Assembly: GCA_031266435.1 (NCBI GenBank)
Contig: JAISAZ010000082.1
Location: forward strand, 62,001 to 126,000
Direction: 5' to 3'
DNA from: Accumulibacter sp.
GTDB taxonomy: Bacteria > Pseudomonadota > Gammaproteobacteria > Burkholderiales > Rhodocyclaceae
DNA: 64,000 nt
Below are positions 4,020-27,489 of this stretch, piece by piece. Numbering within the stretch: position 1 is the first letter of the stretch; every line of letters starts with the position of its first letter. A model generated the notes under the pieces. The model had not been told where the DNA came from and made no database searches. It saw only the letters and a list, made by a program, of their open reading frames with translations. Made by a program: the position numbers and the translations under genes.

Positions 4020-4029
4020 TTTTTCACTT

Positions 4030-5113: not shown

Positions 5114-6414
5114 GTCGCTTCCGCCGCTTCGCCTTCGTTCAGACGGATTTCGATGTAGGCGCTGTCGCGCTCTTGGCGCAGCCAGTCCTGGTAGGCTTCG
5201 TCGAGCTTTCTTTCGCGCAGCGCCTGACGCGCGGCGGCACGCTGGCGTTCGGTCGAAACATCCTGGACGCGGCGCTCCAGAACTTCGATCAGGTGAAAGC
5301 CGAAAGGCGTCTGTACCGGCGCGCTGAGTTCGCCGGGTTTCAGCGCGTCCATCGCCTGTTCGAATTCCGGGACGGTGTCTCCGGGATACACCCAGCCCAG
5401 GTCGCCGCCCTTCGTCGCGGTCCCGTCCTGCGAGTAGAGACGCGCGAGTTCGGCGAAGTTCCCGCCGTAGCGAATCCGTTCGTAGAGGCCGTCGAGCCGG
5501 TGCTTCGCCTCCGATTCGGAAACGAGTTCGTTGACGCGGATCAGGATGTGGCGAACGCGCGTCTGCTGTACCGCCGGGAGGAGATTCCTTCCCCCCGTCT
5601 TCGAAATCAGCTTCACGATGTGAAAACCGTTCGGGCTGCGAAGGAGGCGCGAGATTTCTCCGTTGCCCATGCGGGCGACCGCGTCGGCGAAGAGGTTCGG
5701 AAGGCGGTTGAGCGGGCGTTTCTCCATGTAGCCGCCCTGGAGTCCGTCGGGCGCGTCGGAATACGCCGCCGCCATCTTGGCGAAGTCCTCGCCCTGACCG
5801 AGGCGTTCGAGGATCTCCTCGCCCTTTTTCTGAAGCGCCAGGATCTGTTCGGGACTCGCCGACTCGGGCGAGCGCAGGAGAATGTGCGCGATTTCGTATT
5901 CTTCTTCGGACGACGCGGCGTCTCCCGCGAGGTAGTTGTCGATTTCACCTTCCGATATGACGATTTTGTTCTCGACCTCGCGTTCGCGGAGCCGCGAGAT
6001 GGTCATTTCGTTTCGGATGTCTTCGCGGAAGCTCGCGAATGAAATCCCGTCTTTCTGCAATATCTCGCTGAACTGCGAAAGCGGCATATTGCTCCCCGCG
6101 GCGATCCTCTGGAGCGCCATTTCGAGCTGCATGTCGTCGATGCTGATCCCGACCTCGCGCGCGCGCTGCAACTGCACCTTGTCCATGATCAGGCGTTCGA
6201 GCATCTGCCTTTCGAGAACGTCGCGCGGCGGCAATTCCATCCCCTGTTTTTCCAGGCGCTTCAACGCCATATCGAGCCGCGAAAGCAATTCCAGATGCGT
6301 AATCACTTCGTCATTGACGACCGCGACGATGCGATCGGCGGGAACCGGCTCGCCGAACGAGGGCGCCGGCAGGGCGAAAACGAAAAAAAGGAGGAGGAAA
6401 CGGAGAGATTTCAT
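5110..6414 (-). CDS. surA: Periplasmic chaperone and peptidyl-prolyl isomerase SurA
   Basis: SurA escorts unfolded outer-membrane proteins, including LptD, through the periplasm. The 434-residue product starts with a clear signal peptide (hydrophobic LLLFFVFALPAPSFG), followed by the N-terminal chaperone domain (VPADRIVAVVNDEVIT) and two parvulin domains at roughly residues 170-275 and 285-385, each with the FxxLAxxYS/DGxxGGDLGW-type pattern. It lies 15 bases downstream of lptD and overlaps pdxA, giving the classical lptD-surA-pdxA-rsmA operon. Confidence 0.95.
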   Translation of the reverse strand: MKSLRFLLLFFVFALPAPSFGEPVPADRIVAVVNDEVITHLELLSRLDMALKRLEKQGMELPPRDVLERQMLERLIMDKVQLQRAREVGISIDDMQLEMALQRIAAGSNMPLSQFSEILQKDGISFASFREDIRNEMTISRLREREVENKIVISEGEIDNYLAGDAASSEEEYEIAHILLRSPESASPEQILALQKKGEEILERLGQGEDFAKMAAAYSDAPDGLQGGYMEKRPLNRLPNLFADAVARMGNGEISRLLRSPNGFHIVKLISKTGGRNLLPAVQQTRVRHILIRVNELVSESEAKHRLDGLYERIRYGGNFAELARLYSQDGTATKGGDLGWVYPGDTVPEFEQAMDALKPGELSAPVQTPFGFHLIEVLERRVQDVSTERQRAAARQALRERKLDEAYQDWLRQERDSAYIEIRLNEGEAAEAT

Positions 6415-6429
6415 GATGAATTCAACCTG

Positions 6430-9400
6430 TCATTGCCCTAGATACGAAGAGTCCTGATACGGTTCGTTGACCAGACTATACCCCTGGATATTGCGCCTGA
6501 GAATCTGGATCGGATTCGAGCCGATGCTTGCGAAGTCGTTGAGTTCGAGTTGCACGAAGAACGCCGCCGACGTCGAATCCTGCGTCAGCGCGAGCCTTTG
6601 CATGACCCCGCGCAGAACCCAGCAGCCGCCCTTGTATTCGACGCCGGTGACCGCCTGGACGACGCGCCCCGCCTGCGAAGCCGTCGAAAGCGTCGTTCCG
6701 GCGTCCTTGAACGAGTAATTGAGCCGCCCGACCGCGTAGAGACGCCCGCTGATCGGCCACTGCGCCGAAAAGTCGACCTGGTTGATCGGTGACGCTTCGT
6801 CGCGGTTGTAGCGGTAGGCCGCGTTGAACACCTTTCCGGGTTCGGGCACGTAGCGCATCCCGATCGACTGGCGCTTCACCTCGCGCTCCGAAAAATTGTA
6901 TTGCATCGAAAAATCGGCGTAAAGATGCGGGTAGATCTGCCCGTTGAACGACGCGAGGAAGTCCGACCGGTCCCACTTTCTGTCTTCCTGCGTTTGCGTC
7001 GGGTCTTCGACGAGGCCGACCTTGCCCTTCGTGAAGTAGAAGCGCTGCCCCAGCATCATGCGCATGATTTCCGTGCCGCTGCGCGGGTCGAGCAGGCGGC
7101 TCGAAAGTCCGGCGGTCAATTGGTTGGCGTTGCTGACCCGATCCCAGCTCGAAAACTGGTTTTCGGAAAAGATCTGCGCGAAGTTGAAGTCGGCCAGACC
7201 GGTATCGAACACGGGAATCTGGCTCTGATTCTTGTACGGGATATTCAGATAGTAGAGGCGCGGTTCGAGGGTCTGCGTGTAATCGCGTCCGAACCAGTTG
7301 CTCTTGCGCTCGAAGGTCATTCCCGAATCGACGCTGAGCACCGGAAGGTTGACGTTGATCTCGTGCTCCTGCCCTTGGGGGCCGCCCGAAAGCGAATAGC
7401 GCCGTATGTTCATGCCGACTTTCGGCGTGACGTACCACCCCGGCCGGATAAAGGGCAAGGAGACCTGCGGGTAGAGGACGACGCGCTGACCGACCGGCGG
7501 GTCGACGAGGAAGCCGTTGATCACCTGCTTCGGCCTCGAAAACGACGTATATTGAACCATCAGATTGCTGTCGGTCCCGTAGAGGTCGGGCTGGCGCGCG
7601 TTGAACGTGAGCTGCGGAAGCATGCGGTACTGTTCGACGATCGGGTTCTTCGGGTCGGGTTGCAGGGTCTGGTAGGCCTGGAAATTGGCCGTCGCGTTCC
7701 ACCACCCGCCGCCGTAATAGCTGAGAATCCCCTGTTGCAGGAGTTGGCCTTGCGAGGTCATCGAAACGTTGCTCGACAGGTCGGTGAAAAACCTGTCGTC
7801 CGAAACCTTGTTGTAATTGATCTGCCCGTAGAATCCGCTCGGCGTGTTCTGCGTATGCATCAGGGAGATTCCGTAGCGATTCTCTCCGTCGCGTAACTTG
7901 TCGGACGGAAGAACGTTGAGGCGTGCGAGTCCGCGTGCGTAGTTTCCGTCGCTCCTCCTGTCGAGGTAGCGGATTTCCGAATCCAGGAGCAGCCCGCGCC
8001 TCAAAAGGAGTTGCGGCGTAACGAGCGCGTCGAGGTTCGGCGCGATATTCCAGTAATACGGCGTCCGAATCATCGCGCCGACGTTGCTCGTCGCGCCGAA
8101 CGACGGCGCGAGGAAGCCCGACTTGCGCGCGTTGCTCAGCGAAAAGGGAAGGATCGGCGTATAAAACAGGGGAATATCCTTGAAATAAAGCGCCGCGCCG
8201 CGTCCCCGCCCTTCCTCCTTGTCGAAGTCGAGCTTGAGTTCGTCTGCCTTGAGATACCAGTCGTAGTTGTCCGGGGAACAGGTCGTGAAACGCGCGTTCG
8301 TCATGTTGTAGTGATTTTCGCCTTCGAGGTCAAGCCGCTCGGCGTCGCCGTGCGCGTCGGAGTAGGTCCGCCCGATCGCGCTCGAATTCCTGCGCTTGTA
8401 GTCGATCATCAGCGGCGGCGCGAAGCCCGAAGCGGCCTCGTCGGGGTCATCGGGCGCACCGAGATCGCCAGGGGACCGCATCCAGAAGGTATTGAGATTT
8501 TTCGGCTGCCGCTTGACGAGGAAGGTGGGGTTTTCAAAAAAACCGACCTTGTCTTCGAGCCGCATCCGCATCTTCGGTCCGGAAACGAGGTCCAGCCCGT
8601 GTTCGAGTCTCGCGTTGCCTTCCCCCTCGATTTCGTCCTCGACCGGCCAGTACGTCAGGCGGTCCGCCTTGATGACGACGTCGGGCTTGCGTAGCTCGGC
8701 AGCGCCGTAAGCGTTCATTTCGCTCTCTCCGTCGCCGACGACGCGGTCGGCGATCAGGAAGATCGGGCGATCGTCGCCGGAATCGCCTTCGGGCACCCCG
8801 CCGAGCGTCCTTGACAGCTTGAGTTCGAGCGGCGGCAGATCGTCGGTCGACTCTTCGGCATAAACGCTCTTTTCGAAGCTCTCGCCGGAGAAGGTCGGAG
8901 CGTTAGAAGCGTTCGGCGCGTCGGCGTCCGCCGCCGTTCCGGTTTCAGACGGCGCATAGACTCCGGGAAGCCCAAGCAGACGAGGGTCGACGCGCAAAAG
9001 ACCGAGACGGCGCACGCTTTCGACCTCGCTGGGAGTCGGCGTCGCCCACGGCGCGCGAGGTTTTTCCGCCGAAGGCGCGGGAGGTTTTTCCGCCGAAGCC
9101 GCGCGCGCTTCGCTCACGTCTCGCGCGTTTTCCCCGGTATCCACGTCCCGCGTTTTTACGCCACCCAAGCGGGGTTCGGGCGTATTGTCCGGCGCATCGC
9201 CGCGCGGCGCACGCGGCGTCGCGGGGGCGAAGTCGGATTCTGAGCCGAGTTCGGCGCCGGGTTCAAATTCAATCGGCGGGGCGCTCGCGGGGTCGGGCGT
9301 TGCCACCGGCGCGGCGAGCGTCCCGGGCACGCCGGATGCGTTGGACGCGTCGGACACGCCGGATGCGCCGGACACGCCGGACACTTCAGACGCTCCCGAT

Positions 9401-9900
9401 TCTTCGGGTTGGGCCGGAAGCGTGCTTTTCTCTTCGCTCACCGCCTCGGTCGTTTTTCGCGCTTCGTCTTCGGCGGCTTCTTTTTTCGAGTCCCCTTCGC
9501 CCCGCATTTGCGGCGTTTCCGCTACGGGCGCCGTCGGGGCGTCCGCCGCGCCGCGCGCGTCGGGAGGCGTCGTCTCGCGTTCCATGGCGCCGCGCTCGCG
9601 GGTTTCGTCGGGCCTTTCGCCGGAGATTCCTTCCCGCGACTCTTCGGTCGGCGGGGCGCCCGCGGAAGGCGCCGCGTCGCGCACGGGCGGCTCCGGTTTA
9701 CGCGCGGGCGGCAACCCCAGCAAGGCAGGATCGACGCGCAGGGGCGTCGGGGCCTGCGCAAGCGCCGCCTGATTCAATCCGCCGACGAACAGACAGAGCA
9801 CGCACGACACGCGCGCGAAGCGAAGGCTCCGCGCCGCGATTTGCGTCAAAAATCGTTGCCTACAAGGCCGAAAGGAAAAAATCATCCGGGCGTAAGACAC
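6430..9900 (-). CDS. lptD: LPS-assembly protein LptD with long N-terminal extension
   Basis: LptD is the outer-membrane barrel that places lipopolysaccharide on the cell surface with LptE. The product is 1156 residues against about 750-820 for the usual family. A signal peptide (SCVLCLFVGGLNQAALAQA) is followed by some 320 residues rich in Ala, Glu, Pro, Ser and Gly, with a tract of SGVSGASGVSDASNASG. The motif LRVDPxLLGLP occurs twice, before and after this tract. The OstA jellyroll starts near residue 380 (IFLIADRVVGDGESEMNAYG) and the barrel follows. Only one conserved cysteine pair is apparent (FTTCSPDNYDWYL and YKGGCWVLRG). The start is GTG at 9900; the ATG at 9885 is an alternative. Confidence 0.93.
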   Translation of the reverse strand: MSYARMIFSFRPCRQRFLTQIAARSLRFARVSCVLCLFVGGLNQAALAQAPTPLRVDPALLGLPPARKPEPPVRDAAPSAGAPPTEESREGISGERPDETRERGAMERETTPPDARGAADAPTAPVAETPQMRGEGDSKKEAAEDEARKTTEAVSEEKSTLPAQPEESGASEVSGVSGASGVSDASNASGVPGTLAAPVATPDPASAPPIEFEPGAELGSESDFAPATPRAPRGDAPDNTPEPRLGGVKTRDVDTGENARDVSEARAASAEKPPAPSAEKPRAPWATPTPSEVESVRRLGLLRVDPRLLGLPGVYAPSETGTAADADAPNASNAPTFSGESFEKSVYAEESTDDLPPLELKLSRTLGGVPEGDSGDDRPIFLIADRVVGDGESEMNAYGAAELRKPDVVIKADRLTYWPVEDEIEGEGNARLEHGLDLVSGPKMRMRLEDKVGFFENPTFLVKRQPKNLNTFWMRSPGDLGAPDDPDEAASGFAPPLMIDYKRRNSSAIGRTYSDAHGDAERLDLEGENHYNMTNARFTTCSPDNYDWYLKADELKLDFDKEEGRGRGAALYFKDIPLFYTPILPFSLSNARKSGFLAPSFGATSNVGAMIRTPYYWNIAPNLDALVTPQLLLRRGLLLDSEIRYLDRRSDGNYARGLARLNVLPSDKLRDGENRYGISLMHTQNTPSGFYGQINYNKVSDDRFFTDLSSNVSMTSQGQLLQQGILSYYGGGWWNATANFQAYQTLQPDPKNPIVEQYRMLPQLTFNARQPDLYGTDSNLMVQYTSFSRPKQVINGFLVDPPVGQRVVLYPQVSLPFIRPGWYVTPKVGMNIRRYSLSGGPQGQEHEINVNLPVLSVDSGMTFERKSNWFGRDYTQTLEPRLYYLNIPYKNQSQIPVFDTGLADFNFAQIFSENQFSSWDRVSNANQLTAGLSSRLLDPRSGTEIMRMMLGQRFYFTKGKVGLVEDPTQTQEDRKWDRSDFLASFNGQIYPHLYADFSMQYNFSEREVKRQSIGMRYVPEPGKVFNAAYRYNRDEASPINQVDFSAQWPISGRLYAVGRLNYSFKDAGTTLSTASQAGRVVQAVTGVEYKGGCWVLRGVMQRLALTQDSTSAAFFVQLELNDFASIGSNPIQILRRNIQGYSLVNEPYQDSSYLGQ

Positions 9901-9980
9901 AAAAACAAGCGCTCAGACTCAGGGTTCACGAAGCTGTCGAATGATAAAATGATGAATTCTAACACTAAAGAGGAAGCGCG

Positions 9981-10991
9981 ATGCCGCGTCTCGCCCAGTT
10001 GGACGACTGGCTCAAGCGCCAATTTTCGCCGGACGGCGAAAAACACGACTTCCGGTTGACGCGCGCGTCGTCCGACGCGAGCTTTCGCCGTTATTTTCGA
10101 ATCACGCTCCCCGACGGCGGAACGCGGATCGTCATGGACGCCCCGCCGGAGCACGAGGACTGCCGTCCCTTCGTGAAAGTCGCCGCGCTGTTTAGCGCCG
10201 CGGGCGTCAATGTGCCCGCCGTCGAAGCCGAAGACCTCGCGCAGGGTTTCCTGCTCCTCTCCGACTTCGGCGATACGACTTACTTAAAAGCGCTCGACGC
10301 CTCGACGGCGCGGGAACTCTACGGAGACGCCGTCGACGCGCTCGTCGCGATCCAGCGCGCCAGCCGTCCCGGAATCCTGCCGGATTACGACCGGAACCTC
10401 TTGCGGCGCGAAATCGGCCTCTTCCCGAAGTGGTACGTCGCGCGTCATCGGCGCGTTGCACTGAACGATCGGCAGACCGCCGACCTTGGCGCCGTCTTCG
10501 AAAAGATACTCGAGAACGCGCTCGCGCAACCGAAGGTTTTCGTGCACCGCGACTACCACTCGCGCAACCTCATGCGGACCGCGCACGGCAATCCGGGCAT
10601 CCTCGACTTTCAGGACGCCGTCTATGGACCGATCACCTACGACCTCGTTTCACTCTTCCGCGACGCCTACATCGCGTGGGACGAAGAGACCGAACTTGAC
10701 TATGTCATCCGCTACTGGGAAACCGCGCGCGGCGCGGGACTCCCGGTACCGCTCGACTTTTACGACTTTTACCGCGATTACGAGTGGATGGGCGCGCAGC
10801 GCCAACTCAAGGTTCTCGGAATTTTTGCCCGCCTGTATCACCGCGACGCGAAGGACGATTACCTGAAAGACCTGCCGCGCGTGATGGACTATCTGCGCCG
10901 CGTCTGCACGCGCTACACCGAGCTGCGCCCGCTCGCGCGCGTCCTGAACGAGATCGAGGAAGTGAAGACCGAAACGCGTTTGAGCTTCTGA
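9981..10991 (+). CDS. amgK: N-acetylmuramate/N-acetylglucosamine kinase
   Basis: The product has the aminoglycoside-phosphotransferase fold. The catalytic loop is VFVHRDYHSRNLM, and the metal-binding Asp is in GILDFQDAVYGPITYDLVSL. Together with murU, which follows one base later, it fits AmgK. AmgK phosphorylates the anomeric hydroxyl of MurNAc or GlcNAc in the cytoplasm, so recycled wall sugar re-enters UDP-MurNAc synthesis without MurA. It is divergent from lptD, and a GAGGAAG ribosome site precedes the start. The pair is typical of pseudomonads and many betaproteobacteria. Confidence 0.88.
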   Translation: MPRLAQLDDWLKRQFSPDGEKHDFRLTRASSDASFRRYFRITLPDGGTRIVMDAPPEHEDCRPFVKVAALFSAAGVNVPAVEAEDLAQGFLLLSDFGDTTYLKALDASTARELYGDAVDALVAIQRASRPGILPDYDRNLLRREIGLFPKWYVARHRRVALNDRQTADLGAVFEKILENALAQPKVFVHRDYHSRNLMRTAHGNPGILDFQDAVYGPITYDLVSLFRDAYIAWDEETELDYVIRYWETARGAGLPVPLDFYDFYRDYEWMGAQRQLKVLGIFARLYHRDAKDDYLKDLPRVMDYLRRVCTRYTELRPLARVLNEIEEVKTETRLSF

Positions 10992-10992
10992 G

Positions 10993-11697
10993 ATGAGAGC
11001 GATGATCCTCGCTGCGGGACGCGGCGAACGCATGCGCCCGTTGACCGACACGACGCCGAAGCCGCTCCTGTGTGTCGCCGGGAAACCGCTGATCGTCCAT
11101 CAGATCGAACGCTTGGCCGCCGTCGGCTTTCGCGAGATCGTGATCAACCTCGCGCACCTGGGCGACCGGATCGAAGCCGCGCTCGGCGACGGTCGGCGTT
11201 TCGGCATCGAAATCCATTACTCGCCGGAGACCTCCGGCGCGCTCGAAACCGCCGGAGGGATCGCGCACGCACTGCCGCTGCTTGGCGACGGCGCCTTCCT
11301 CGTCGTGAACGGCGACCTCTGGTGCGACTGGGACTTCGATCAGGTGCGTCGGGTCGCCCGGTGCCTCGATTCCGACCCCGCACGGTCGGCGCATCTCGTC
11401 CTCGTCGATAACCCGCCCTACCACCCCGAAGGCGACTTCCGCCTCGACGGCGGAAACCTTCGGAGCGTCGGCGACACGGAGGGCGAGGCGTTCACGTACG
11501 CGGGAATCGGCGTTTTCACCCCCGCTTTTTTCGCCGGGGTTCCCAAATCCACGTTCATGAAGCTGCGCCCCCTGCTCGACCAAGAGATCGCCCAAGGCCG
11601 CGTGACCGGCGAACACCATAAAGGCCGGTGGTTCAACGTCGGAACCCCCGAACAACTCGCCGTGCTCGACCGGGAATTGTCGATGGAAACAAAATGA
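10993..11697 (+). CDS. murU: N-acetylmuramate-1-phosphate uridylyltransferase
   Basis: MurU uses UTP to turn MurNAc-alpha-1-phosphate into UDP-MurNAc, the step after AmgK. The sugar-nucleotidyltransferase signature MILAAGRGERMRPLTDTTPK opens the protein, with KPLIVHQIERL following and the metal-binding Asp in VVNGDLWCDWDF. The length of 234 residues is normal. The stop codon overlaps the pepP start (ATGA). Confidence 0.9.
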   Translation: MRAMILAAGRGERMRPLTDTTPKPLLCVAGKPLIVHQIERLAAVGFREIVINLAHLGDRIEAALGDGRRFGIEIHYSPETSGALETAGGIAHALPLLGDGAFLVVNGDLWCDWDFDQVRRVARCLDSDPARSAHLVLVDNPPYHPEGDFRLDGGNLRSVGDTEGEAFTYAGIGVFTPAFFAGVPKSTFMKLRPLLDQEIAQGRVTGEHHKGRWFNVGTPEQLAVLDRELSMETK

Positions 11698-13022
11698 ACG
11701 CAAGCACGGACACTTTGCATCCCGCACCTTCCGTTTACTCCGTCCGCCGCCGCGCGCTGCTTGAACGGATCGGCGACGGAATCGCCGTCGTCCCGACCGC
11801 GCCACAGCGCCTCCGCAACCGCGATTCGTACTACCCCTACCGCCCCGATAGCTATTTCCACTACCTCAGCGGATTCCCGGAACCCGAAGCGCTCGTCGTC
11901 CTCGTCGGAGGCGCCGCGCCGCGCAGCCTGCTCTTCTGCCGTGAAAAAGACGAAGCGCGCGAGACCTGGGAGGGGTTTCGTTACGGCCCGGACGCCGCGC
12001 GCGCGTCTTTCGGTTTCGACGGGACTTACGCTTTTTCCGAAATCGACGCGCGTCTTCCCGAACTGTTTTCCGGGGTCGAAACTCTCTGGCTCCCCTTCGG
12101 GACTTACCGGGAGTGGGAGACCCGTGTCCTCGCGCTGATCGACGGCCTGCGCGCGTCCTCGCGCGCCGGGACGCGCGCTCCGACGCGCGTCGCCGACCTT
12201 TGCATCCACCTCGACGACATGCGGCGAATCAAGGACGCGTCCGAAGTCGCGCTGATGCGCAAGGCCGCGGCGATCGCGTCGGCGGGACACGCGCGCGCGA
12301 TGCGCGCCTGCCGTGTCGGGATGACCGAGTACGCGCTCGAAGCCGAACTCGACTACGAATTCCGCCGCTTGGGCGCCAGCGGCCACGCGTACCCGCCGAT
12401 CGTCGCCGGCGGCGCCAACGCCTGCGTCCTTCACTACGACGAAAATCGCGCGCCGCTCGCCGAAGGGACGCTCGTCCTGATCGACGCGGGTTGCGAATTC
12501 GAGAACTACGCCTCCGACATCACGCGGACTTTCCCGGTCGGAGGCCGCTTTTCCCCGGCGCAGCGCGATATTTATGAAATCGTCTTCGCGGCGCAGGCCG
12601 CCGCGTTTTCCGCGATCGCACCAAACGCCTCTTTCGACGCGTACCACGCCGCCGCGCTGCGCGTGCTCGTCCAGGGACTCGTCGACCTGAAGGTCTTGAA
12701 CGGTACGGTCGACGGCATGATCGAAAGCGAAGCGTACAAACCCTACTACATGCACCGAACGGGGCATTGGCTCGGACTCGACGTCCACGACGCGGGCGAA
12801 TACGTCTCCAGAACGCGCGAATCGGCCGTACTCGCGCCGGGGATGACGCTGACGGTCGAGCCGGGGCTTTATTTCCGCCCCGGATGCGCCGCGCCGGAAG
12901 TCTTCCACGGAACCGGCGTCCGCATCGAGGACGACGTTCTCGTCACCGAGACCGGCGCCGAAGTGTATACGTCGGCGCCGAAGACCGTCGCCGAAATCGA
13001 AAGCCTCGTCGGTCGGCAATGA
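11694..13022 (+). CDS. pepP: Xaa-Pro aminopeptidase (aminopeptidase P)
   Basis: This metallopeptidase removes an N-terminal residue before proline. The 442-residue product has the aminopeptidase P N-domain (RRRALLERIGDGIAVV, then RNRDSYYPYRPDSYFHYLSGF). The pita-bread domain follows, with metal ligands in LIDAGCEFENYASDITRTFP, HRTGHWLGLDVHD and the Glu of VEPGLYF. The ATG at 11694 overlaps the murU stop and gives the expected N-terminus; an in-frame extension upstream to 11628 has no family support. Confidence 0.93.
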   Translation: MNASTDTLHPAPSVYSVRRRALLERIGDGIAVVPTAPQRLRNRDSYYPYRPDSYFHYLSGFPEPEALVVLVGGAAPRSLLFCREKDEARETWEGFRYGPDAARASFGFDGTYAFSEIDARLPELFSGVETLWLPFGTYREWETRVLALIDGLRASSRAGTRAPTRVADLCIHLDDMRRIKDASEVALMRKAAAIASAGHARAMRACRVGMTEYALEAELDYEFRRLGASGHAYPPIVAGGANACVLHYDENRAPLAEGTLVLIDAGCEFENYASDITRTFPVGGRFSPAQRDIYEIVFAAQAAAFSAIAPNASFDAYHAAALRVLVQGLVDLKVLNGTVDGMIESEAYKPYYMHRTGHWLGLDVHDAGEYVSRTRESAVLAPGMTLTVEPGLYFRPGCAAPEVFHGTGVRIEDDVLVTETGAEVYTSAPKTVAEIESLVGRQ

Positions 13023-13070
13023 GCGGAGCGACGACGGCGGCGGAGTGACTTTCCGGCACGCCGATGCAAC

Positions 13071-13091
13071 ACGCCTCTGTTGGGCGTTTTT
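13071..13091 (+). terminator. Possible terminator after pepP
   Basis: ACGCC and GGCGT form a short stem around a 7-base loop, followed by a T run. The stem is only five pairs, so this is a weak call. It falls 49 bases after the pepP stop, where the GC-rich operon ends and the AT-richer island begins. Confidence 0.4.
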
Positions 13092-13110
13092 GATGTTGGG
13101 AGTTTTCCGA

Positions 13111-13139
13111 TTGCCGCCATTTTCTGTCTTTTGTAGAAT
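13111..13139 (+). promoter_or_regulatory. Sigma70-like promoter for the membrane-protein island
   Basis: TTGCCG at 13111-13116 and TAGAAT at 13134-13139 are separated by 17 bases. The next gene starts 50 bases downstream. The prediction is from sequence only. Confidence 0.5.
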
Positions 13140-13188
13140 ACCGATGCGCTGAAATAGTCAATCGCCGAAAAAACCGCCGAAGGAGCAC

Positions 13189-13827
13189 GTGGTGTTTTCC
13201 CTGTCGCTTGTTTTACTCGTCTGTATCTTCGCCTGCTACCAGGAGCGCGAGGTTCTCATGAAAAACAGCGACGAACTCGACTGCCGTGAATTTTTCAAAT
13301 TCAGGTCGGTACAGCATAGCGTCGTTTTTTATTGCGCGTTCGCTTTCTCCGCATTTCTGATGACTGTCGAGTTCAGTTCCTTTGACCTCGGAAAGGAGAT
13401 TCCCTTCCTGCCGTTGCCACTTTTCTTCGTGGCGTCTCTGATGCTCTTGCTGGAATCCTTTCTCTCGGAAACATCGCGCGAGACGTCGATGCGCCTGCGC
13501 GTCGAACAGCGTATCAGCAAAAATCTGGATAAATTCCCTCTCCTCTTTTTTCATCTTCTTGTCGCCGCGATAGTTTTCAAATTTACCTTTCGGGGAGGCG
13601 CCGAACGCATAATACGTTCGCCTGGAACTTTTTCGTTTGCCGGTGCGTCATTACGTTCCGGGGAGCAGGTCGTTGCCTATCTGAGCATCGTGTTGCGCGA
13701 GCTTCTCATGCCGAAAACCTTCCTCGGCGGCGATCAAAAAATCACGACGATTCGCAAAATTCTCAGATATTCTGGAATTCTATTGTTTGTCATCTCTTGC
13801 AGCCTGCCTTTCATTTTATGGAAATAA
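13189..13827 (+). CDS. Unrecognised membrane protein, island family A, copy 1
   Basis: I do not recognise this 212-residue protein. It has an N-terminal hydrophobic stretch, a charged piece with MKNSDELDCREFFKFRS, then about four more hydrophobic segments, so it is probably an inner-membrane protein. It is a paralogue of the next gene: both share MKN-x(2)-ELD-x-REF-x-KF near residue 25-35 and a C-terminal K(T/S)FL-x-GD...IR(K/R)I pattern. The start is GTG at 13189 or 13192, after an AGGAG at 13181. The region is visibly AT-richer than its neighbours, suggesting acquisition. Confidence 0.65.
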   Translation: MVFSLSLVLLVCIFACYQEREVLMKNSDELDCREFFKFRSVQHSVVFYCAFAFSAFLMTVEFSSFDLGKEIPFLPLPLFFVASLMLLLESFLSETSRETSMRLRVEQRISKNLDKFPLLFFHLLVAAIVFKFTFRGGAERIIRSPGTFSFAGASLRSGEQVVAYLSIVLRELLMPKTFLGGDQKITTIRKILRYSGILLFVISCSLPFILWK

Positions 13828-13928
13828 TGATTATGTCAGGACAATTTCCAGAACAAAGCGCGTACCTCGATCAACTCCGCCTTTGTAAAGGCATTGCATC
13901 ATGACGGCTGGCGCATAAGGGGATAGAG

Positions 13929-14576
13929 ATGCTTATCCTCCCGCTTTTTTTGCTCTTTTCAGCCCTCGTCTGCGAATTTGAATATGAAGCGCATATGAAG
14001 AACCGGGCCGAACTGGATTGGCGGGAATTTCTGAAATTCAAAGCCGCGCGGCACAGCTTCGTATTCTGTTTTGTCGAGATCACGTTCTGTCTGTTCGCCT
14101 TGCTTGAGGTCGGTTTCCACGTTTATTTCAATTTCAGAAGATTGTCCGTGCTTTACCCTTGGCCATTTTCAATTTTATTCATTCTGTCGGCTCTTTTTTT
14201 TCTCATCACCACGCTGGATTGGATTCTGTCAGCGTCATCGCCGGAGTCATCGCTCACACAGGAAGTCAGAAGCGCACGATACAAAAAACCGGCGCGATTC
14301 GTATGGTTGATCATCGCCATTCCAATTCTTTTGTCGATCTTCCAAATAAAAACAAATGATTTTGATTCGGCGTCCCGGAAAATTCCCCTTTTGGTTGTTT
14401 TGTTTTATTCCAGATATTTGGGCGCTTACCTCCTTGCGTATCTGAACGACCTGATCACGTCGAAGTCATTTCTCAATGGAGACGCCGAACTGAATGGAAT
14501 CCGAAGGATTTTTCGTCGCATTGAACTTTCATTGCTTGCTTCAATTCTTGTCTCCTTTGTTTTTCTAATAAGGTAA
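13929..14576 (+). CDS. Unrecognised membrane protein, island family A, copy 2
   Basis: This 215-residue protein is a diverged paralogue of the gene before it, sharing MKNRAELDWREFLKFKAARHS near the N-terminus and KSFLNGDAELNGIRRIFRR near the C-terminus. About five hydrophobic segments suggest an inner-membrane location. The ATG follows an AAGGGGAT site. The function is unknown; tandem copies with low identity suggest diversifying duplication. No signature of a transporter, kinase or protease is visible. Confidence 0.65.
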   Translation: MLILPLFLLFSALVCEFEYEAHMKNRAELDWREFLKFKAARHSFVFCFVEITFCLFALLEVGFHVYFNFRRLSVLYPWPFSILFILSALFFLITTLDWILSASSPESSLTQEVRSARYKKPARFVWLIIAIPILLSIFQIKTNDFDSASRKIPLLVVLFYSRYLGAYLLAYLNDLITSKSFLNGDAELNGIRRIFRRIELSLLASILVSFVFLIR

Positions 14577-14655
14577 ACGCGAAGTTCGGCGTACCGCGCA
14601 AAACGCCTCCGTTGGGGAGGTTCGACCCGTATCAGCGCACCCGTAATAACGCATA

Positions 14656-14684
14656 TTGTCATTCTTTGTCACGCGCGGTATAGT
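14656..14684 (+). promoter_or_regulatory. Sigma70-like promoter before island family B gene
   Basis: TTGTCA at 14656-14661 and TATAGT at 14679-14684 have exact 17-base spacing and lie 35 bases before the ATG at 14720. This is one of the best promoter matches in the window and suggests the gene starts its own transcript. Confidence 0.6.
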
Positions 14685-14719
14685 TTATCGCAAATGAAAT
14701 AAACAGGGGTGGTCATGCC

Positions 14720-15301
14720 ATGCTCGATGATGTTCAAGAGGCCCTTCGCTGGGAAAATATCAAAAAGTCACACTTGGCGTATCTTCGCGCCTACGGCTGG
14801 TATTTTGCCCTGTCGCTTGTCGCTGCCTTGATCGCACCGGACGACATCCTGGCTTCTTTTCCTTTTCTGGCGGATTATTTTGTCGACCCGGTCTCGTCGA
14901 GTGTTTCTTTTTTAGTCCCCATCCAGAGATGGGCGGAACTTTCGAAATTCCCTGAAGTTACGCGACTTACCTTGGCTCTGTTGTGCGTCACCTACCCCAT
15001 CGTGACGCTCCATTACTTTTTTCTCTACCAAGCGCCAAAGCAACTTAAAAGTCGGGGCGCCGTCCTGTTTAGCCTATGTCTGGTCGTCCCGATTGCATTT
15101 TTAATTCCGTGGTTTCTCATCTTCAACTATACGGACCATTCTTACCGTGGCAGTGGCGCTTTCGTACTGAGGCAGATGGGGGCTTTTGCGATGACATCGC
15201 GCCTCGGCTTGGGCTTGGTGGCGCCATTACTTTTATCCGTAAGTTCCAATATTCTCGTAATGATACCTGGGATTCTTTTTCAAAAAAAACGCACTGAGTG
15301 A
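14720..15301 (+). CDS. Unrecognised membrane protein, island family B (one unit)
   Basis: The 193-residue protein has about four hydrophobic segments. It carries the pattern RAYGWYFALSLVAALIAPDD, then DYFVDPVSSSVSFL, E-LSKFPEV, and a C-terminal TSRLGLGLVAPLLLSVSS. The same unit occurs twice, in tandem, in the 484-residue protein at 26035-27489, so this is the single-unit form. The function is unknown. A clear promoter lies just upstream. The next gene starts about 60 bases later. Confidence 0.65.
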   Translation: MLDDVQEALRWENIKKSHLAYLRAYGWYFALSLVAALIAPDDILASFPFLADYFVDPVSSSVSFLVPIQRWAELSKFPEVTRLTLALLCVTYPIVTLHYFFLYQAPKQLKSRGAVLFSLCLVVPIAFLIPWFLIFNYTDHSYRGSGAFVLRQMGAFAMTSRLGLGLVAPLLLSVSSNILVMIPGILFQKKRTE

Positions 15302-15364
15302 GCAAATGCTTTCCAAACCATTCGATGCCCTGACGGCAACCCGGCAAATGTGCAGAGAAGCAAT

Positions 15365-16507
15365 ATGCAATTCACAACAAAAATCATAAGAGCCGCCGGG
15401 ATTGTCGCTGGAACTGTATTGCTGATATTGTTCGGTGGGGTTGCCGTATTTTGGGTCGTAAAAGACAGGATGGGGGCGGCGGAGAGAAACCTGCACCCGA
15501 TAGTCGACTTTAACCCAAGCAATTTCATCGAAGTGGCGGAAGCGCCCTTTTTTTATCGCATTGACAACAAATTGAAATACGCGGCGTCCATTGCTTCGGA
15601 TGCGCCGACGCTTTTCGAAAGTCCGCACTTGTATCGCTGGGATTTTTACCCCTCTCCCGACAATAAAAAACTACTCGCCGTCGATCGTAAAAACCTTTAT
15701 TTGATTCAAAAAGGGAAGGAAACCATTACGTTGATCGAAAATGCACGGTTTTACGATATTCCGCTCGGCGAGTTTTTTTACGACTCTCGCAATCTACAGT
15801 GGGACGCCGGCTCGCGCTATGTTTTCATCCCCTACGATAAAAAAACTGAGCCTCGAAATCGATCCAAAAATGCTGTCTTATTTCGAATCGACACGGAAAA
15901 CATTTCTGCTCCGGAGATTATCGCAAAAAATTTCAAGGCGGATGACAACTATTTTTCAGTTACCGACAAAGCGGTCTGTTTTGGATATTTGGCAGATAAA
16001 AACAAGAAAAAATGGCGATGCACTACAAAAAACAGCGTATCTGATATCGAAAAATACAGCCGTACCGGGATTCTCCTCGAAAATAGCGAGCGCATCACTG
16101 GAATACCTTTCGCATATCATTCGGGCGGCGGAGAAACATGGAGTCAACGCACAGGCTTTTTTATCAAACACCGATTCCGCGAGAATTTTGACGGCATGTT
16201 CTCGAAAAACGATCCAAACAAACCGCTGATACAATTCAGAAGATTCAAAAAATTTCCTCCTCTGGATAAGGAGTTCAGCGGATTTCTTAGTTTTCTCGCT
16301 GTTCTCCCCGGAGGGAGATATGTCGTTTTTTCCATCGACCACGGCGAAGACATTCTTCTGGACCGCTCCAGCCTCGCCTATCGCGCACTGCCTCGAAACG
16401 TGGAAGTAATGGATAATCCCGCAATCTCTTCCGACCCTGCGTTTCGCCCGTGGCCGGACCTGTTTTACTGGGGTAAAAGTTTGCATCGGGATTCGCCCGC
16501 CCCATAG
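15365..16507 (+). CDS. Unrecognised membrane-anchored protein, island family C, copy 1
   Basis: The 380-residue product has one N-terminal transmembrane segment (AAGIVAGTVLLILFGGVAVFW) and a long, beta-rich remainder that should sit outside the cytoplasm. Pieces such as FYPSPDNKKLLAVDRKNLYL and LQWDAGSRYVFIPYDKK resemble TolB-type propeller blades, though no complete repeat pattern is evident. The C-terminal half of the next gene is a paralogue. I chose ATG 15365 over the GTG at 15350 because AGAAG precedes it. The function is unknown. Confidence 0.6.
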   Translation: MQFTTKIIRAAGIVAGTVLLILFGGVAVFWVVKDRMGAAERNLHPIVDFNPSNFIEVAEAPFFYRIDNKLKYAASIASDAPTLFESPHLYRWDFYPSPDNKKLLAVDRKNLYLIQKGKETITLIENARFYDIPLGEFFYDSRNLQWDAGSRYVFIPYDKKTEPRNRSKNAVLFRIDTENISAPEIIAKNFKADDNYFSVTDKAVCFGYLADKNKKKWRCTTKNSVSDIEKYSRTGILLENSERITGIPFAYHSGGGETWSQRTGFFIKHRFRENFDGMFSKNDPNKPLIQFRRFKKFPPLDKEFSGFLSFLAVLPGGRYVVFSIDHGEDILLDRSSLAYRALPRNVEVMDNPAISSDPAFRPWPDLFYWGKSLHRDSPAP

Positions 16508-16544
16508 GCCAAACCACAGCGCCGAGTAAATTTCCAAATCATTC

Positions 16545-18329
16545 ATGCTCAAGAAGCACGAGCCGATGCAACCCGCCCACGACCGCCGTCCTCTGCGAAT
16601 CCTCAATGCCTTGAAAGGCGCTCTTTTTGACGCGGTCAGGAATACCTTCAATTTCAACGGGAGGGCGAGCAGGAGGGAATTCTGGCTGTTTGTTCTTGCC
16701 TTTCTTCTGATTCACGCGCTCTCTTTTTTTGTCTTGCGGAGATTCCGGACACACGAGGAAGAAATCAAGCTCTTTTTCGATATCTCCTTCGATTCGCCGC
16801 TTGACGACCTGCTCGATTTTTACGTGTGGGAACGCAGATATATTACTTTCGTTCTTCTTCCGAGCTGCCTCCCTTTTTTCTCCTTGAGCTTAAGAAGGGT
16901 GCGTGATTCGGGCCTTTCAGGCGCGTGGGTTCTTCCGATATGGGGCCTGTCCTGCTTCGTGTTTCTCAATCCGCCCTTTCCTGCTTATCTTGTAGTGCCA
17001 ACGTGGTTTCTGATCGTGCTCCTCATTCTCTGCAGGCGTGGAGACCGTCCCACTGCGGGAAAGCCTGGCAAAGCGTTCTCCAGCCTTGTCTCGACATTGA
17101 AGAGGCGATACATTCCGATCGCCGTGGCGGCAACTCTCGTTGGGATTTCCGCCATTCTGTACAAAGCGAGCCCTGAGGCAGTGGGAATCGTCGATTATCG
17201 CCCGGTTGCTTTTCTGGAAAAAGCGGACGCACCTTTTTTCTATGTCTTTGGCAATCGACTCAAACACGGCGTGTCGATCGACCCTGACGCGCCGACGCTT
17301 TTTTCCGGCCCGTCATTAGCGCTTCCGGGAATCGATGTCGCCGAAAACGGGTTTCGGGTCTACCCATCGCCGAACAATCTGAAAGCCGCTGTCGTCAGCG
17401 AAGAAAAGCTCTACCTCGTTCAACCCGGCGAAGAGCCAAAATTATTGCTCAAAAAAGTCGATCGCCCCATCGACGGACTCATCAACGGGGAATCCTGGCA
17501 TCGAAGCGAGTTTCTGCAATGGGACGCCGATTCGCGGTATATCTACATCGCGCGCGACAAGAAACAGACTATTTTGTACAAAAATTACCACACCAGCACT
17601 TCCGAAGCGGCGCGACTCATTCGAATCGATACAGAAGATATTGCCCACCGGAAAACGATCGCCGAGGGCTTCCATGTTTTCTTTACGCCCTACGCTTCGC
17701 GTTATTTTCTTGTGGGCAAAGAAAGCGCGTGCTTCCTTGGTCTTTTTTCAGGAGGGGGATGGGAATGCGCGACGTCCGAAGGAACACACCGGATGATTTC
17801 CTACAGCGCGGACACCATTATCCTTGCCGACGATACGCGATTGACAGATGCGAAATTCATCACGGTCGACCACGGACAAAATGCTCGACGCCCAAAAGCC
17901 CACTCAGGGCATCTTGGCTCCCCCGCTCAGTTTCATTCTGATGATGATCCGAGGGTGGAAACGGAATTTCAAAGGCATAGTTGCCTATCCGTGAAGCAGC
18001 TTGAAGATAGTTCAGGCAGATTTTACAAAGGGCTTTTTTCGGAAGGCGGACGCAATTCCCCGTACTTCACGTTCAAAGAAGGCGCGGGCTTGAACAAATA
18101 CTGGAGCGTCGTTTTGCCTGGAAACAAATATGTTTTCCTGGATATTGGAACGCCGTCAAATTCCATCCGGATTCTACTGGATCGTACAAACGGGGAATAC
18201 CGTCAACTTCAAAAAAATACCCGCGTGTATGTTAACGATGCATTCGATGCATGCGGGAAAAGAATGACGCCGGAAATTCTGTGGGGTGAAAGGCTTCCCA
18301 TTCGGAAAATGTCGAAACCAACGGGATAA
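16545..18329 (+). CDS. DUF805-like membrane domain fused to family C extracytoplasmic domain
   Basis: Residues about 30-165 match the DUF805 pattern: FNFNGRASRREFWLFVLAFL, then LRRVRDSGLSGAWVLPIWGL, with several membrane segments. Another membrane segment lies near residue 185-205. The rest (about 215-594) is a paralogue of the preceding gene: AFLEKADAPFFYVFGNRLKH, VYPSPNNLKAAVVSEEKLYL and LQWDADSRYIYIARDKK align with it in order. The fusion suggests an envelope protein whose external domain is held by a DUF805 module. No catalytic motif is visible. Confidence 0.6.
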   Translation: MLKKHEPMQPAHDRRPLRILNALKGALFDAVRNTFNFNGRASRREFWLFVLAFLLIHALSFFVLRRFRTHEEEIKLFFDISFDSPLDDLLDFYVWERRYITFVLLPSCLPFFSLSLRRVRDSGLSGAWVLPIWGLSCFVFLNPPFPAYLVVPTWFLIVLLILCRRGDRPTAGKPGKAFSSLVSTLKRRYIPIAVAATLVGISAILYKASPEAVGIVDYRPVAFLEKADAPFFYVFGNRLKHGVSIDPDAPTLFSGPSLALPGIDVAENGFRVYPSPNNLKAAVVSEEKLYLVQPGEEPKLLLKKVDRPIDGLINGESWHRSEFLQWDADSRYIYIARDKKQTILYKNYHTSTSEAARLIRIDTEDIAHRKTIAEGFHVFFTPYASRYFLVGKESACFLGLFSGGGWECATSEGTHRMISYSADTIILADDTRLTDAKFITVDHGQNARRPKAHSGHLGSPAQFHSDDDPRVETEFQRHSCLSVKQLEDSSGRFYKGLFSEGGRNSPYFTFKEGAGLNKYWSVVLPGNKYVFLDIGTPSNSIRILLDRTNGEYRQLQKNTRVYVNDAFDACGKRMTPEILWGERLPIRKMSKPTG

Positions 18330-18587
18330 TATTACATTATACTAGTTTCTGGTCGAACGAACACTCCGCGCCGAGTGAAATCGGCATCGCCGGAGTCAAC
18401 ATCACACCGGACGGCAATCAGATCACCGCGACGAGAACATTGATCCGCGAAGATGCTCAAGAAAGCATCGCAGGTACGGGGAATGCAGCCGAAACCGTGA
18501 ACTTCGGCACACCCGCGCAAAAACACCTCTGTGCTCCGCGCGTCTGGAGTGATAGAATCGTTGCCCCTTCTGTGAGTTCCTTCTTTC
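18330..18587 (+). other. Gap with a coding-like remnant before typA
   Basis: An open frame without a start runs through about 18345-18570 and reads like protein (for example [20 protein letters not shown]). It could be the decayed end of an island gene. TAGAAT at 18553-18558 may be the typA -10 box, but no good -35 box is visible. Confidence 0.3.
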
Positions 18588-22141: not shown

Positions 22142-22465
22142 ATGATGAAAGGCGGAATGGCCGGGCTGTTGAAGCAAGCCCAGGTGATGCAGGAAAACAT
22201 GAAGAAGGCGCAGGACGAACTCGCACGAATCGAAGTCGAGGGAGAGTCGGGCGCGGGCATGGTCAAGGTGACGATGACGTGTTCGCACGATGTCCGTCGC
22301 GTCGCGATCGACGAGGCCGTCATGGACGACAGGGAAATGCTCGAAGACCTCGTCGCTGCGGCGTTCAACGACGCCGTCCGCCGCGCGGAGAAGACCTCGC
22401 ACGAGCGCATGGCGGGTTTCACGGCGGGACTCAACCTGCCGCCCGGAATGAAACTCCCCTTCTGA
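22142..22465 (+). CDS. ybaB: YbaB/EbfC nucleoid-associated protein
   Basis: The 107-residue product has the family pattern [26 protein letters not shown] followed by the DNA-binding beta section and C-terminal [12 protein letters not shown]. YbaB dimers bind DNA with little specificity and lie between dnaX and recR in most proteobacteria, as here. The TGA stop is the first three bases of a MITE copy. Confidence 0.95.
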
Positions 22466-22569
22466 TTCCAACTCCAGTTCATCCCACCCATTGTCGACTT
22501 CGCCTTGCGGCACGCAAGACCTGTGAAGCGGCTCGGCATCAAAGCATGAACGAACTGGAAAAGGAATAA
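22463..22569. repeat. MITE-like element, copy 2 (between ybaB and recR)
   Basis: A 107-bp copy with left end TGATTCCAACTCCAGTTCAT and right end GAACTGGAAAAGGAAT. The left TGA is the ybaB stop. The right end places AAAGGA about 8 bases before the recR ATG, so it appears to serve as the recR ribosome site. Confidence 0.88.
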
Positions 22570-22572
22570 GCG

Positions 22573-23172
22573 ATGCAAACATCGAGCCTCGAAGCGCTGA
22601 CCACAGCCTTGCGTTGCCTCCCCGGAGTCGGGCCGAAATCGGCGCAGCGCATGGCGTTTCACCTGATGCAGCGCGAACGCGCCGGCGCCGACCGTCTGGC
22701 GAAATCGATCCTGCACGCGCTCGAAGCGCTCAGGCATTGCCGCTACTGCAATACCTTCACCGAAGACGAAGTCTGCGAGCGCTGCCGCTCACCGAAGCGC
22801 GACGCCAGCCAGCTCTGCATCGTCGAAACGCCTATCGATATGGCGATGATGGAGCAGACTCTTGCGTATTCCGGGATGTACTACGTCCTGATGGGGTGCG
22901 TCTCCCCGCTCGACGGCGTCGGAATCCGCGAACTCGGACTCGAAAAGCTCCTCGAACGCGTCGACGACGGCGTCGTGCGCGAAGTCGTCATCGCGACGAA
23001 TTTCACCAACGAAGGCGAGATTACGGCGCACTTCCTGACCGAAATGCTCAAGCCGCGTCCGCTTCGCGTATCGAGAATCGCGCGCGGCGTCCCGGTCGGC
23101 GGAGAACTCGAATACGTCGACGCGGGGACGCTTGCGCAGGCGTTCAGGGAACGCAGATCGCTCGTCGAATGA
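22573..23172 (+). CDS. recR: Recombination protein RecR
   Basis: RecR, with RecO and RecF, loads RecA on gapped DNA. The 199-residue product has the helix-hairpin-helix ([17 protein letters not shown]), the zinc finger [16 protein letters not shown] and a Toprim domain ([16 protein letters not shown]...[15 protein letters not shown]). The size is standard. Its ribosome site seems to be provided by the end of the upstream MITE. Confidence 0.96.
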
Positions 23173-26034: not shown

Positions 26035-27489
26035 TCATTCCAAATTAATAGATCCGGCGGTTTTCAATGATTTCAATGCGTTTGAAAACCCCTCTTTATG
26101 CATTATGATAAACTCACCGAGGAATAATGAGCTGACTATCATAATAATCGGCGCGACTGACCCCAAACCAATTCGTGATACAAACATAGATGTGAAAGCC
26201 TTGTCCACAATGCCGACTCGATCCGGCAAACCATGAAGGGAAACCATGATCTCCGGAAAATATAAAAACATGCCAAGAGTCATTAAATAGATCCACATCA
26301 AATTGACAAGTATTTTATTTCCTCGCGGCGCATCTGGAAGAATAAGACCGTAATGGAACGCTCGATCCTTTTTTGACAGCGCATGAACATAAATGGCAGT
26401 CACAACAGGAAAAAGCGCGACCAGTAAAGAAAATACAAAGAGAGTAACTTCCGGGAAATCGGACATCTCTGCAAATTCATGAATGGGCAACCAGAATGCG
26501 ACCAGCGAAGAGACCGGGTCGACAAAATAATCTTTCAGGATTGGACAGGAAGAAAGAATGTCTTTCGGTACAAACAAGGCTACGACAAGTGACAATTCGA
26601 AATACCATCCGTATGCACGGGGAAAGCTATAATCCAATTTCTTGTCTTTATAGTCAGCCCAATTATACATTATGAGGATACCAACTATCAACGCGGTAGG
26701 TAGACTAAAGTCATCATCGAGGTAAATGAAGACGGCGAGGAGCGCCATACAACCGAAATCCGTAAAAGACAGTTTTGATAGTTGGGCTTTCAAATTCCGA
26801 TACGCATTCATCACCGAGGCCTTTGTCAACACGCTCGGTTGTTCTGACCCAAAAAACGACATCCGCGAGTTCTCATAACTTCTTCTGTTCGCGCTCGGCG
26901 GCATCAGAAATCTGAGCGCAATAACAAGAATTGGCGCAATCGTCATGAAAAGAATGGCGCTCAAAGCCAAACCCATTCGTGAATCAAACATGAAGCCAGC
27001 GACTTCATTCGAAACATATCCTTTTTGCAAGAACCCATTGTAAAAATCCAACATCATTTTACTGGATAAAATGTACCCCATGATGGTTGTCATCAAATAA
27101 CTTTGGCCCAATGGTCCAATGAGCCATCTTCTGGATGGAGGGCATGGATAAAAAAAGAACAAAAGAATGGAAGCTATATTCAATATAGCAACTGTAAAGA
27201 GGGCGACTTCATTGAAATGAGAGAGAGCCGCAAATTCATCAACGGCACTCGACTTAAATAAAAAGCTAACGGTATAAGAAAAACCAATGAAGGAATCGCG
27301 CAAAACTGGATGGGAAGTCAGAATATCCTTGGGCGTCAATAAGGCCGACGCGGACGCCAAAGCGAAAAGCCACAGGTACACGCGCAAAACGTAAGACCCA
27401 TCGGTTTTTGTTTTTTCCCAGCGCGTTTCTTTTCCGGTCTCGACAACTTCGCTGTACCCGGCCTTCGAATTTTGAAGCAATTCCACCAT
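26035..27489 (-). CDS. Unrecognised membrane protein, island family B (two tandem units)
   Basis: The 484-residue product contains two copies of the unit seen alone at 14720-15301. Unit 1 begins near residue 33 (YVLRVYLWLFALASASALLT, then PKDILTSHPVLRDSF). Unit 2 begins near residue 290 (RAYGWYFELSLVVALFVPKD, then DYFVDPVSSLVAFWLP, EMSDFPEV). Each unit ends with F-x-SR-x-GL before a hydrophobic run. A linker of about 80 residues with its own membrane segments separates them. The ATG has a strong GGGAGGGG ribosome site. The gene is AT-rich like the 13-18 kb island but lies 8 kb away and in the opposite direction. The function is unknown. Confidence 0.65.
   Translation of the reverse strand: MVELLQNSKAGYSEVVETGKETRWEKTKTDGSYVLRVYLWLFALASASALLTPKDILTSHPVLRDSFIGFSYTVSFLFKSSAVDEFAALSHFNEVALFTVAILNIASILLFFFYPCPPSRRWLIGPLGQSYLMTTIMGYILSSKMMLDFYNGFLQKGYVSNEVAGFMFDSRMGLALSAILFMTIAPILVIALRFLMPPSANRRSYENSRMSFFGSEQPSVLTKASVMNAYRNLKAQLSKLSFTDFGCMALLAVFIYLDDDFSLPTALIVGILIMYNWADYKDKKLDYSFPRAYGWYFELSLVVALFVPKDILSSCPILKDYFVDPVSSLVAFWLPIHEFAEMSDFPEVTLFVFSLLVALFPVVTAIYVHALSKKDRAFHYGLILPDAPRGNKILVNLMWIYLMTLGMFLYFPEIMVSLHGLPDRVGIVDKAFTSMFVSRIGLGSVAPIIMIVSSLFLGEFIIMHKEGFSNALKSLKTAGSINLE

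What the first reader, a model, noticed from the sequence alone, without database searches (positions are those of the whole stretch)
13189..18329. AT-rich island of five paralogous envelope proteins without known function
Family A appears twice in tandem, family B once, and family C twice. All have membrane segments, none has a recognisable enzyme motif, and base composition differs from the flanks. The set sits between pepP and typA with two good promoters of its own. Such clusters of diversified membrane paralogues often belong to immunity, defence or surface-sensing systems, but nothing here decides which.
Basis: partly seen in the sequence, partly recalled or inferred. Interest (0 to 1): 0.68.

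Follow-up and report, generated by a model that had tools for sequence, protein, structure and literature searches.

The report
Orphan toxin-immunity genes beside toxin scrap
A five-gene AT-rich island in an Accumulibacter genome carries a membrane protein from a previously unnamed family that elsewhere sits beside secreted RTX toxins, plus a scrap of such a toxin gene, so it is most likely a leftover set of genes that protect the cell from neighbours' toxins.

Summary
Five intact same-strand ORFs (A1, A2, B1, C1, C2; 13189-18329) lie between pepP and typA, at GC3 0.52-0.60 against 0.78-0.82 for core genes. The block 13027-18494 is absent from the sister genome, where pepP and typA nearly abut. 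The promoters are no more than chance. C2 carries DUF805.

'Immunity' is now supported for family B. A profile built only from non-Accumulibacter relatives hits every Accumulibacter B copy and nothing else among 1,404 ORFs. In 17 of 19 outside loci the B gene or its remnant lies beside a type I-secreted RTX toxin-like gene; where intact and paired it is directly upstream, often in tandem arrays, twice with a toxin 5' remnant. All 14 B-paired toxins have a Gly/Ala-rich membrane-inserting-type segment near the N terminus. The island itself ends in a toxin remnant (18353-18493), homologous to the genome's only RTX toxin (p about 4e-6).

Best reading: an orphan immunity island left after toxin decay, with B a polytopic immunity protein. 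A and C are assigned by association only; C is a membrane-anchored propeller-like periplasmic protein, under purifying selection at another locus. This is a new family, a variant of known polymorphic toxin-immunity systems.

The parts
13027..18494 (.). whole AT-rich block, absent from the sister genome G042 where pepP is followed by the typA upstream region after about 45 bases
   Evidence: blastn/tblastn against G042 contig C125 (L089); no target-site duplication or terminal inverted repeat found
13189..13827 (+). A1, 212-aa predicted multi-pass membrane protein, family A
   Evidence: 35% identical to A2; no Pfam/NCBIfam/PADLOC/PHROG hit
13929..14576 (+). A2, 215-aa predicted multi-pass membrane protein, family A
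   Evidence: family found only in this genome among 40 searched; none on plasmids
14720..15301 (+). B1, 193-aa polytopic membrane protein; family B, homologous to proteins encoded directly upstream of RTX toxins; proposed orphan immunity protein
15350..16507 (+). C1, 385 aa: one TM anchor plus propeller-like periplasmic domain, no DUF805
16545..18329 (+). C2, 594 aa: DUF805 module (aa 35-167), further TM, then propeller-like periplasmic domain (about aa 209-594) with a conserved Cys pair
   Evidence: Pfam DUF805 E 2e-12; alignment A5; AlphaFold2 pTM 0.79; Foldseek matches to beta-propellers, probability 1.0 but low TM-scores
18353..18493 (+). remnant of an RTX toxin gene, homologous to aa 427-480 of the RTX protein on contig C14 (L174:3173-11554)
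   Evidence: Smith-Waterman 80 versus shuffled mean 36.8, sd 4.7, maximum 60 of 2000, fitted p about 4e-6; 0 of 2656 window control stretches reach it; collinear blastn/tblastx pieces
26035..27489 (-). second family-B gene in the window, 484 aa with two B repeats, outside the island
   Evidence: hit by the outside-only B profile at E 4e-14
13111..13139 (+). promoter-like site upstream of A1 (consensus match only, not above chance)
14656..14684 (+). promoter-like site upstream of B1 (consensus match only, not above chance)

Best explanation
The island is an orphan immunity island of a type I secretion (RTX) toxin system. Family B proteins are small polytopic inner-membrane immunity proteins. 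Each is normally encoded directly upstream of an RTX toxin whose N-terminal domain carries a Gly/Ala-rich hydrophobic segment of the membrane-inserting kind, and is proposed to stop that segment from permeabilising the inner membrane. In this Accumulibacter lineage the partner toxin at the pepP-typA site has decayed to a fragment of about 47 codons, while the upstream envelope genes were kept, plausibly because they still protect against toxins made by relatives. Shown: homology of B to the toxin-linked family, the linkage, the toxin remnant, the presence/absence polymorphism. Inferred: immunity activity, membrane target, retention for protection, and that A and C are further immunity or accessory proteins of the same locus.
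For: (1) An HMM built only from 7 outside B relatives finds all Accumulibacter B proteins (E 4e-17 to 3e-5) and nothing else among 1,404 ORFs plus decoys; reciprocal and hhalign (98.3%) agree. (2) 17 of 19 outside loci place a B gene or B remnant beside an RTX/T1SS toxin-like gene, many with HlyB/HlyD. (3) Tandem B arrays with toxin 5' remnants right after B (L114, L147), and an orphan array of four B genes (L148), three of which are nearest to toxin-linked B genes of other genomes. (4) 14 of 14 B-paired toxins have the Gly/Ala-rich N-terminal segment against 3 of 12 others, Fisher p 7e-5; four toxins with the same body but without the segment have no intact B directly upstream. (5) Outside B genes are always AT-richer than their toxin, mean GC 0.438 against 0.570, p 1.2e-4, the same signature as the island. 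(6) Toxin remnant at 18353-18493, same strand, downstream, as in the outside arrays. (7) This genome has an intact RTX-HlyB-HlyD operon on C14, preceded by a small AT-rich one-TM gene. (8) Accumulibacter B forms one clade, support 98/91.
Against: No activity is tested. The Accumulibacter B copies have no intact adjacent toxin. A and C have no detectable relatives at toxin loci, and the C genes at other loci have no toxin remnant nearby. The remnant is short and matches the toxin's body, not its N-terminal domain. Presence/absence could be a deletion in the sister as well as an insertion here. The Gly/Ala-segment cut-off was chosen after seeing the data.
Confidence: 0.62

Rival explanations
1. 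Only B belongs to the toxin system. A and C (and the DUF805 proteins generally) are unrelated lineage-specific envelope or sensing proteins that share the site because it tolerates insertions.
For: C and DUF805 proteins occur at other loci without B or toxin traces. The C gene near htpG is conserved in the sister genome at dN/dS 0.23, so it is kept on its own. C is found in no other genome of 399 in the phylum sample.
Against: B and C are neighbours at two independent loci, here and on C14; A, B and C share the AT-rich signature and sit upstream of a toxin remnant in the order seen in outside immunity arrays.
Confidence: 0.3
2. Family B is a secretion or maturation accessory of T1SS RTX proteins, not an immunity protein.
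For: B often lies in one operon with HlyB, HlyD and the toxin (L156-L159, L161).
Against: Tandem arrays of divergent B copies, an orphan B array without toxin or transporter (L148), and pairing with one kind of toxin N-terminal segment while similar toxin bodies lack B. Accumulibacter keeps B away from its T1SS operon.
Confidence: 0.12
3. A sensor or surface-display cluster: DUF805/propeller proteins read an extracellular signal and A and B are partners.
For: C has a membrane anchor, a periplasmic propeller-like domain and conserved cysteines.
Against: No signalling domain, kinase or regulator in or beside the block; B has independent toxin linkage.
Confidence: 0.08
4. Anti-phage defence or prophage remnant.
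For: One weak PHROG match of the DUF805 part to a moron membrane protein (E 7.5e-4).
Against: No PADLOC hit, no IMG/VR relative of C, no phage-record relative of B, no phage genes in the block, no defence neighbours.
Confidence: 0.03

Closest known systems
Cdz system of Caulobacter crescentus (CdzC/CdzD and immunity protein CdzI; PMC5380434)
   Same: Type I secretion, glycine-zipper toxin segments, small multi-TM inner-membrane immunity protein
   Different: CdzC/D are 84-86 aa proteins, not large RTX proteins; CdzI has three predicted TM segments and no obvious homologues were reported (PMC5380434); sequence relation of CdzI to family B was not tested
CDI ionophore toxins and CdiI immunity proteins (PMC11630599)
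   Same: Polymorphic membrane-depolarising toxins with a putative glycine-zipper motif and highly divergent cognate immunity proteins, about 30% identity within a group
   Different: Carried at the C terminus of CdiA and delivered by contact; here type I secretion, Gly/Ala segment near the N terminus and immunity-like gene upstream
Orphan T6SS immunity gene arrays of Vibrio cholerae (PMC5361080)
   Same: Tandem retained immunity genes after effector displacement
   Different: T6SS effectors with orphan genes in the 3' region; here T1SS RTX toxins with the genes on the 5' side
T7SS TspA/TsaI of Staphylococcus aureus (PMC9484751)
   Same: Membrane-depolarising polymorphic toxin with strings of non-identical immunity genes
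   Different: Gram-positive, other secretion system; no sequence relation tested
DUF805 (PF05656)
   Same: Defines the N-terminal module of C2 and several other proteins of this genome
   Different: Here fused to a propeller-like periplasmic domain found only in this clade in the searches made

Membership tests
Toxin-linked family B (unnamed; RTX/T1SS-associated polytopic membrane proteins) | Sequence homology to the toxin-linked members | tested here: met
   Outside-only HMM E 4e-17 to 3e-5, no other ORF hit; hhalign 98.3%
Toxin-linked family B (unnamed; RTX/T1SS-associated polytopic membrane proteins) | Intact RTX toxin gene directly downstream | tested here: not met
   At B1 only a 141-base toxin remnant lies downstream, beyond C1 and C2; none near the other Accumulibacter copies. 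The copies are therefore called orphan homologues, not complete pairs.
Polymorphic toxin-immunity systems | Immunity-type gene adjacent to a toxin with a swappable toxin domain | tested here: met
   For outside B members: 17 of 19 loci; same toxin body with different N-termini and different upstream genes
Polymorphic toxin-immunity systems | Demonstrated toxicity and neutralisation | not testable with these tools
   Needs bench work
RTX toxin (for the remnant 18353-18493) | Homology to an RTX protein | tested here: met
   p about 4e-6 by shuffles, collinear DNA pieces; a profile of the Ca-binding region alone does not detect it
DUF805 | Pfam model above gathering score | tested here: met
   C2: 47.9 bits against cut-off 25.7; not in C1
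Beta-propeller (C ectodomain) | Fold match to solved propellers | tested here: inconclusive
   All-beta model pTM 0.79; Foldseek probability 1.0, E 5e-6 to 1e-4, but TM-scores only 0.2-0.34
Lit lipoprotein transacylase | Pfam model above gathering score | tested here: not met
   B1 15.2 bits against cut-off 24
Known anti-phage defence systems | PADLOC model match | tested here: not met
   0 hits for seven proteins

The most novel reading that the evidence does not exclude
Burkholderiales and Accumulibacter carry a little-described class of polymorphic toxin system: RTX proteins sent out by type I secretion, with an exchangeable N-terminal toxic module and a matching AT-rich envelope immunity gene immediately upstream. 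Accumulibacter has turned cast-off immunity genes (A, B and C families) into dispersed orphan immunity islands, with DUF805-propeller proteins as an additional immunity class.
Probability: 0.35. Interest if true: 0.75.

Novelty: new variant of a known kind. Interest (0 to 1): 0.58.

Why it matters
It turns a set of unexplained membrane paralogues into a testable toxin-immunity hypothesis. It defines a family with no Pfam or NCBIfam model that marks RTX loci of a likely antibacterial type, points to an N-terminal toxin module rule (Gly/Ala-rich segment with a polytopic partner upstream), and suggests that a reduced-genome Accumulibacter lineage retains orphan immunity, as reported for gut bacteria and Vibrio with T6SS.

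Tried and rejected
Mobile element: no target-site duplication or terminal inverted repeat at the block edges and no transposase in the block. Phage or plasmid origin: no relative in IMG/VR, plasmids or phages for the families searched there (C, B in 84, A in 105). Anti-phage defence: no PADLOC match. Known enzymes: weak Lit, Amj and MASE7 matches of B members are all below Pfam cut-offs. Fold search with the B model (pLDDT 70) gave no PDB match, and no PDB relative was found by sequence for B or C. Promoters are at chance level. Search for toxin remnants near the other C, B and DUF805 loci found none beyond the one in the window. Paper searches for a termite-associated Accumulibacter or for DUF805 function gave nothing useful; that the MAG sample codes are termite guts is from memory and untested. 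One weak B candidate (L116, G990) was dropped because the rebuilt model did not keep it.

Full report
WHAT IS THERE. Five intact + strand ORFs lie between pepP and typA: A1 13189-13827, A2 13929-14576, B1 14720-15301, C1 15350-16507, C2 16545-18329. A1 and A2 are 35% identical, C1 and C2 34%. The GC drop is real. It is not only hydrophobic amino-acid usage: GC3 is 0.52-0.60 against 0.78-0.82 in core genes and 0.81 in a membrane-transporter control. Promoter-like sites are at chance level.

WHERE. The window is part of a 2.66-Mb, 121-contig assembly. Its near relatives in GTDB are titled 'Accumulibacter sp.'.

PRESENCE/ABSENCE. In G042 (TypA 99% identical) a contig carries pepP followed after about 45 bases by the typA upstream region, so the block 13027-18494 is absent there. 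Whether this is gain here or loss there is open. At another C locus (G000 contig C111) G042 keeps only the 3' end of the C gene, which shows that loss also happens.

FAMILY C AND DUF805. C2 has DUF805, a further TM and a periplasmic domain with a conserved Cys pair. The AlphaFold2 model is all-beta (pTM 0.79) and Foldseek finds propellers (DPP-IV, TolB, sortilin) with probability 1.0 but low TM-scores, so 'propeller-like' is as far as it goes. Besides the tandem pair, C lies at four other places in this genome, some as fragments at contig ends; C was otherwise seen only in close relatives. The copy near htpG is shared with G042 at dN/dS 0.23, against 0.06 for htpG and 0.29 for pepP, so it is under purifying selection. 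Other DUF805 proteins of the genome carry a different C-terminal domain.

FAMILY B. B occurs here at 14720-15301, as a double copy at 26035-27489, and on contig C14 next to a C gene. In G019 a B domain is fused behind another membrane module. A search of 399 genomes of the order gave two distant hits, and both lay directly beside RTX-type or RTX-like genes. Further relatives came from a class-level search, a Burkholderia plasmid record and 399 genomes of the family of G365. A profile built only from seven outside members recovers every Accumulibacter B protein and no other of 1,404 ORFs; the reverse search and hhalign agree. In a tree of 34 sequences the Accumulibacter copies are one group, support 98/91.

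LINKAGE. In 17 of 19 outside loci a B gene or B remnant lies beside an RTX/T1SS toxin-like gene (L155 and L160 through damaged B genes, the latter). L114 and L147 look like near-copies of one locus and should be counted with that in mind. Paired B genes are directly upstream, usually within 30 bases or overlapping. L114 and L147 have tandem B genes followed by a 78-85 aa remnant of a toxin N-terminus, upstream of a full toxin. L148 has four B genes and no toxin in 18 kb; three of the four are nearest to B genes of other genomes that are toxin-linked. All 14 B-paired toxins have a Gly/Ala-rich, nearly uncharged hydrophobic segment near the N terminus, against 3 of 12 RTX-type proteins not paired with an intact B (p 7e-5). 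The four toxins L114, L147, L155 and L160, which share the body of the L117 toxin but lack this segment, have no intact B directly upstream; in L147 and L155 a small lipoprotein-like gene takes that place. The B set was collected by B homology, not by toxin, so the linkage is not built in; the cut-off for the segment was set after looking.

THE TOXIN REMNANT. Directly after C2, 18353-18493 (+) encodes a stretch homologous to aa 427-480 of the genome's only RTX protein found (L174:3173-11554): Smith-Waterman 80 against a shuffled mean of 36.8 (sd 4.7), none of 2,000 shuffles and none of 2,656 control stretches reaching it; two collinear DNA pieces agree. A profile of the Ca-binding region alone does not detect it, so the claim rests on the pairwise match. 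The remnant ends where sequence shared with the sister begins. The intact RTX operon (toxin, HlyB, HlyD) is on C14, preceded by an AT-rich 143-aa one-TM gene; RTX proteins of three other Accumulibacter genomes also have a small ORF immediately upstream that is AT-richer than the toxin.

MECHANISM. Most likely, B proteins are inner-membrane immunity proteins against membrane-inserting RTX toxins exported by type I secretion. The island is what remains after the local toxin decayed, keeping protection against relatives' toxins. This follows the logic of orphan immunity arrays (PMC5361080) and of membrane-acting toxins with membrane immunity partners, such as Cdz/CdzI (PMC5380434), CDI ionophores (PMC11630599) and TspA/TsaI (PMC9484751). 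Immunity activity itself is inferred. A and C are placed in the same set by position and composition only.

CONFIDENCE. B belongs to a toxin-linked family: about 0.9. B acts as immunity: about 0.7. The island as a whole is an orphan immunity island: about 0.6. C is an immunity class: about 0.3.

Noticed in passing
window 4014-4135, 22463-22579, 38295-38403, 49969-50069, 55121-55193; also L035, L036, L037, L044, L045, L174: A dispersed intergenic repeat of about 70-125 bases, 77-93% identical, in 15 places (query included) in the sequence held from this genome.
   Followed up: partly
window 1430-1685, 33523-33701, 49261-49540, 54092-54118, 59414-59593, 62233-62422: Intergenic arrays of a 7-base unit (CTCTGTC/CAGAGGA and variants), up to 12 copies, recurring between genes.
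   Followed up: no
window 26035-27489 (-): A gene with two B repeats between a cytochrome c1-like gene and a ubiB-like gene, GC3 0.48.
   Followed up: yes
G000 contig C14, L174:2845-15538: The genome's only RTX toxin operon found: a 143-aa AT-rich one-TM ORF, a 2793-aa RTX ORF with a weak DUF6973 match near its N terminus, HlyB, HlyD.
   Followed up: partly
L176 11932-12396, L177 4819-5253, L178 14802-15350: Other Accumulibacter RTX genes also have a small ORF, AT-richer than the toxin, immediately upstream, unrelated to A, B or C.
   Followed up: partly
L118 (G554) 1-18157: A run of at least four RTX/cadherin-type secreted proteins interleaved with small membrane genes, one of them B-like; could be a multi-toxin locus.
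   Followed up: partly
L043 2549-3641 and L039 1286-1885: C-family genes with one in-frame stop in G001 and G019: decaying or misassembled copies.
   Followed up: no
L040 6645-7781: In G019 a family-B domain is fused behind a membrane module that stands alone, divergent from a C gene, in this genome (L035 14874-16004).
   Followed up: partly
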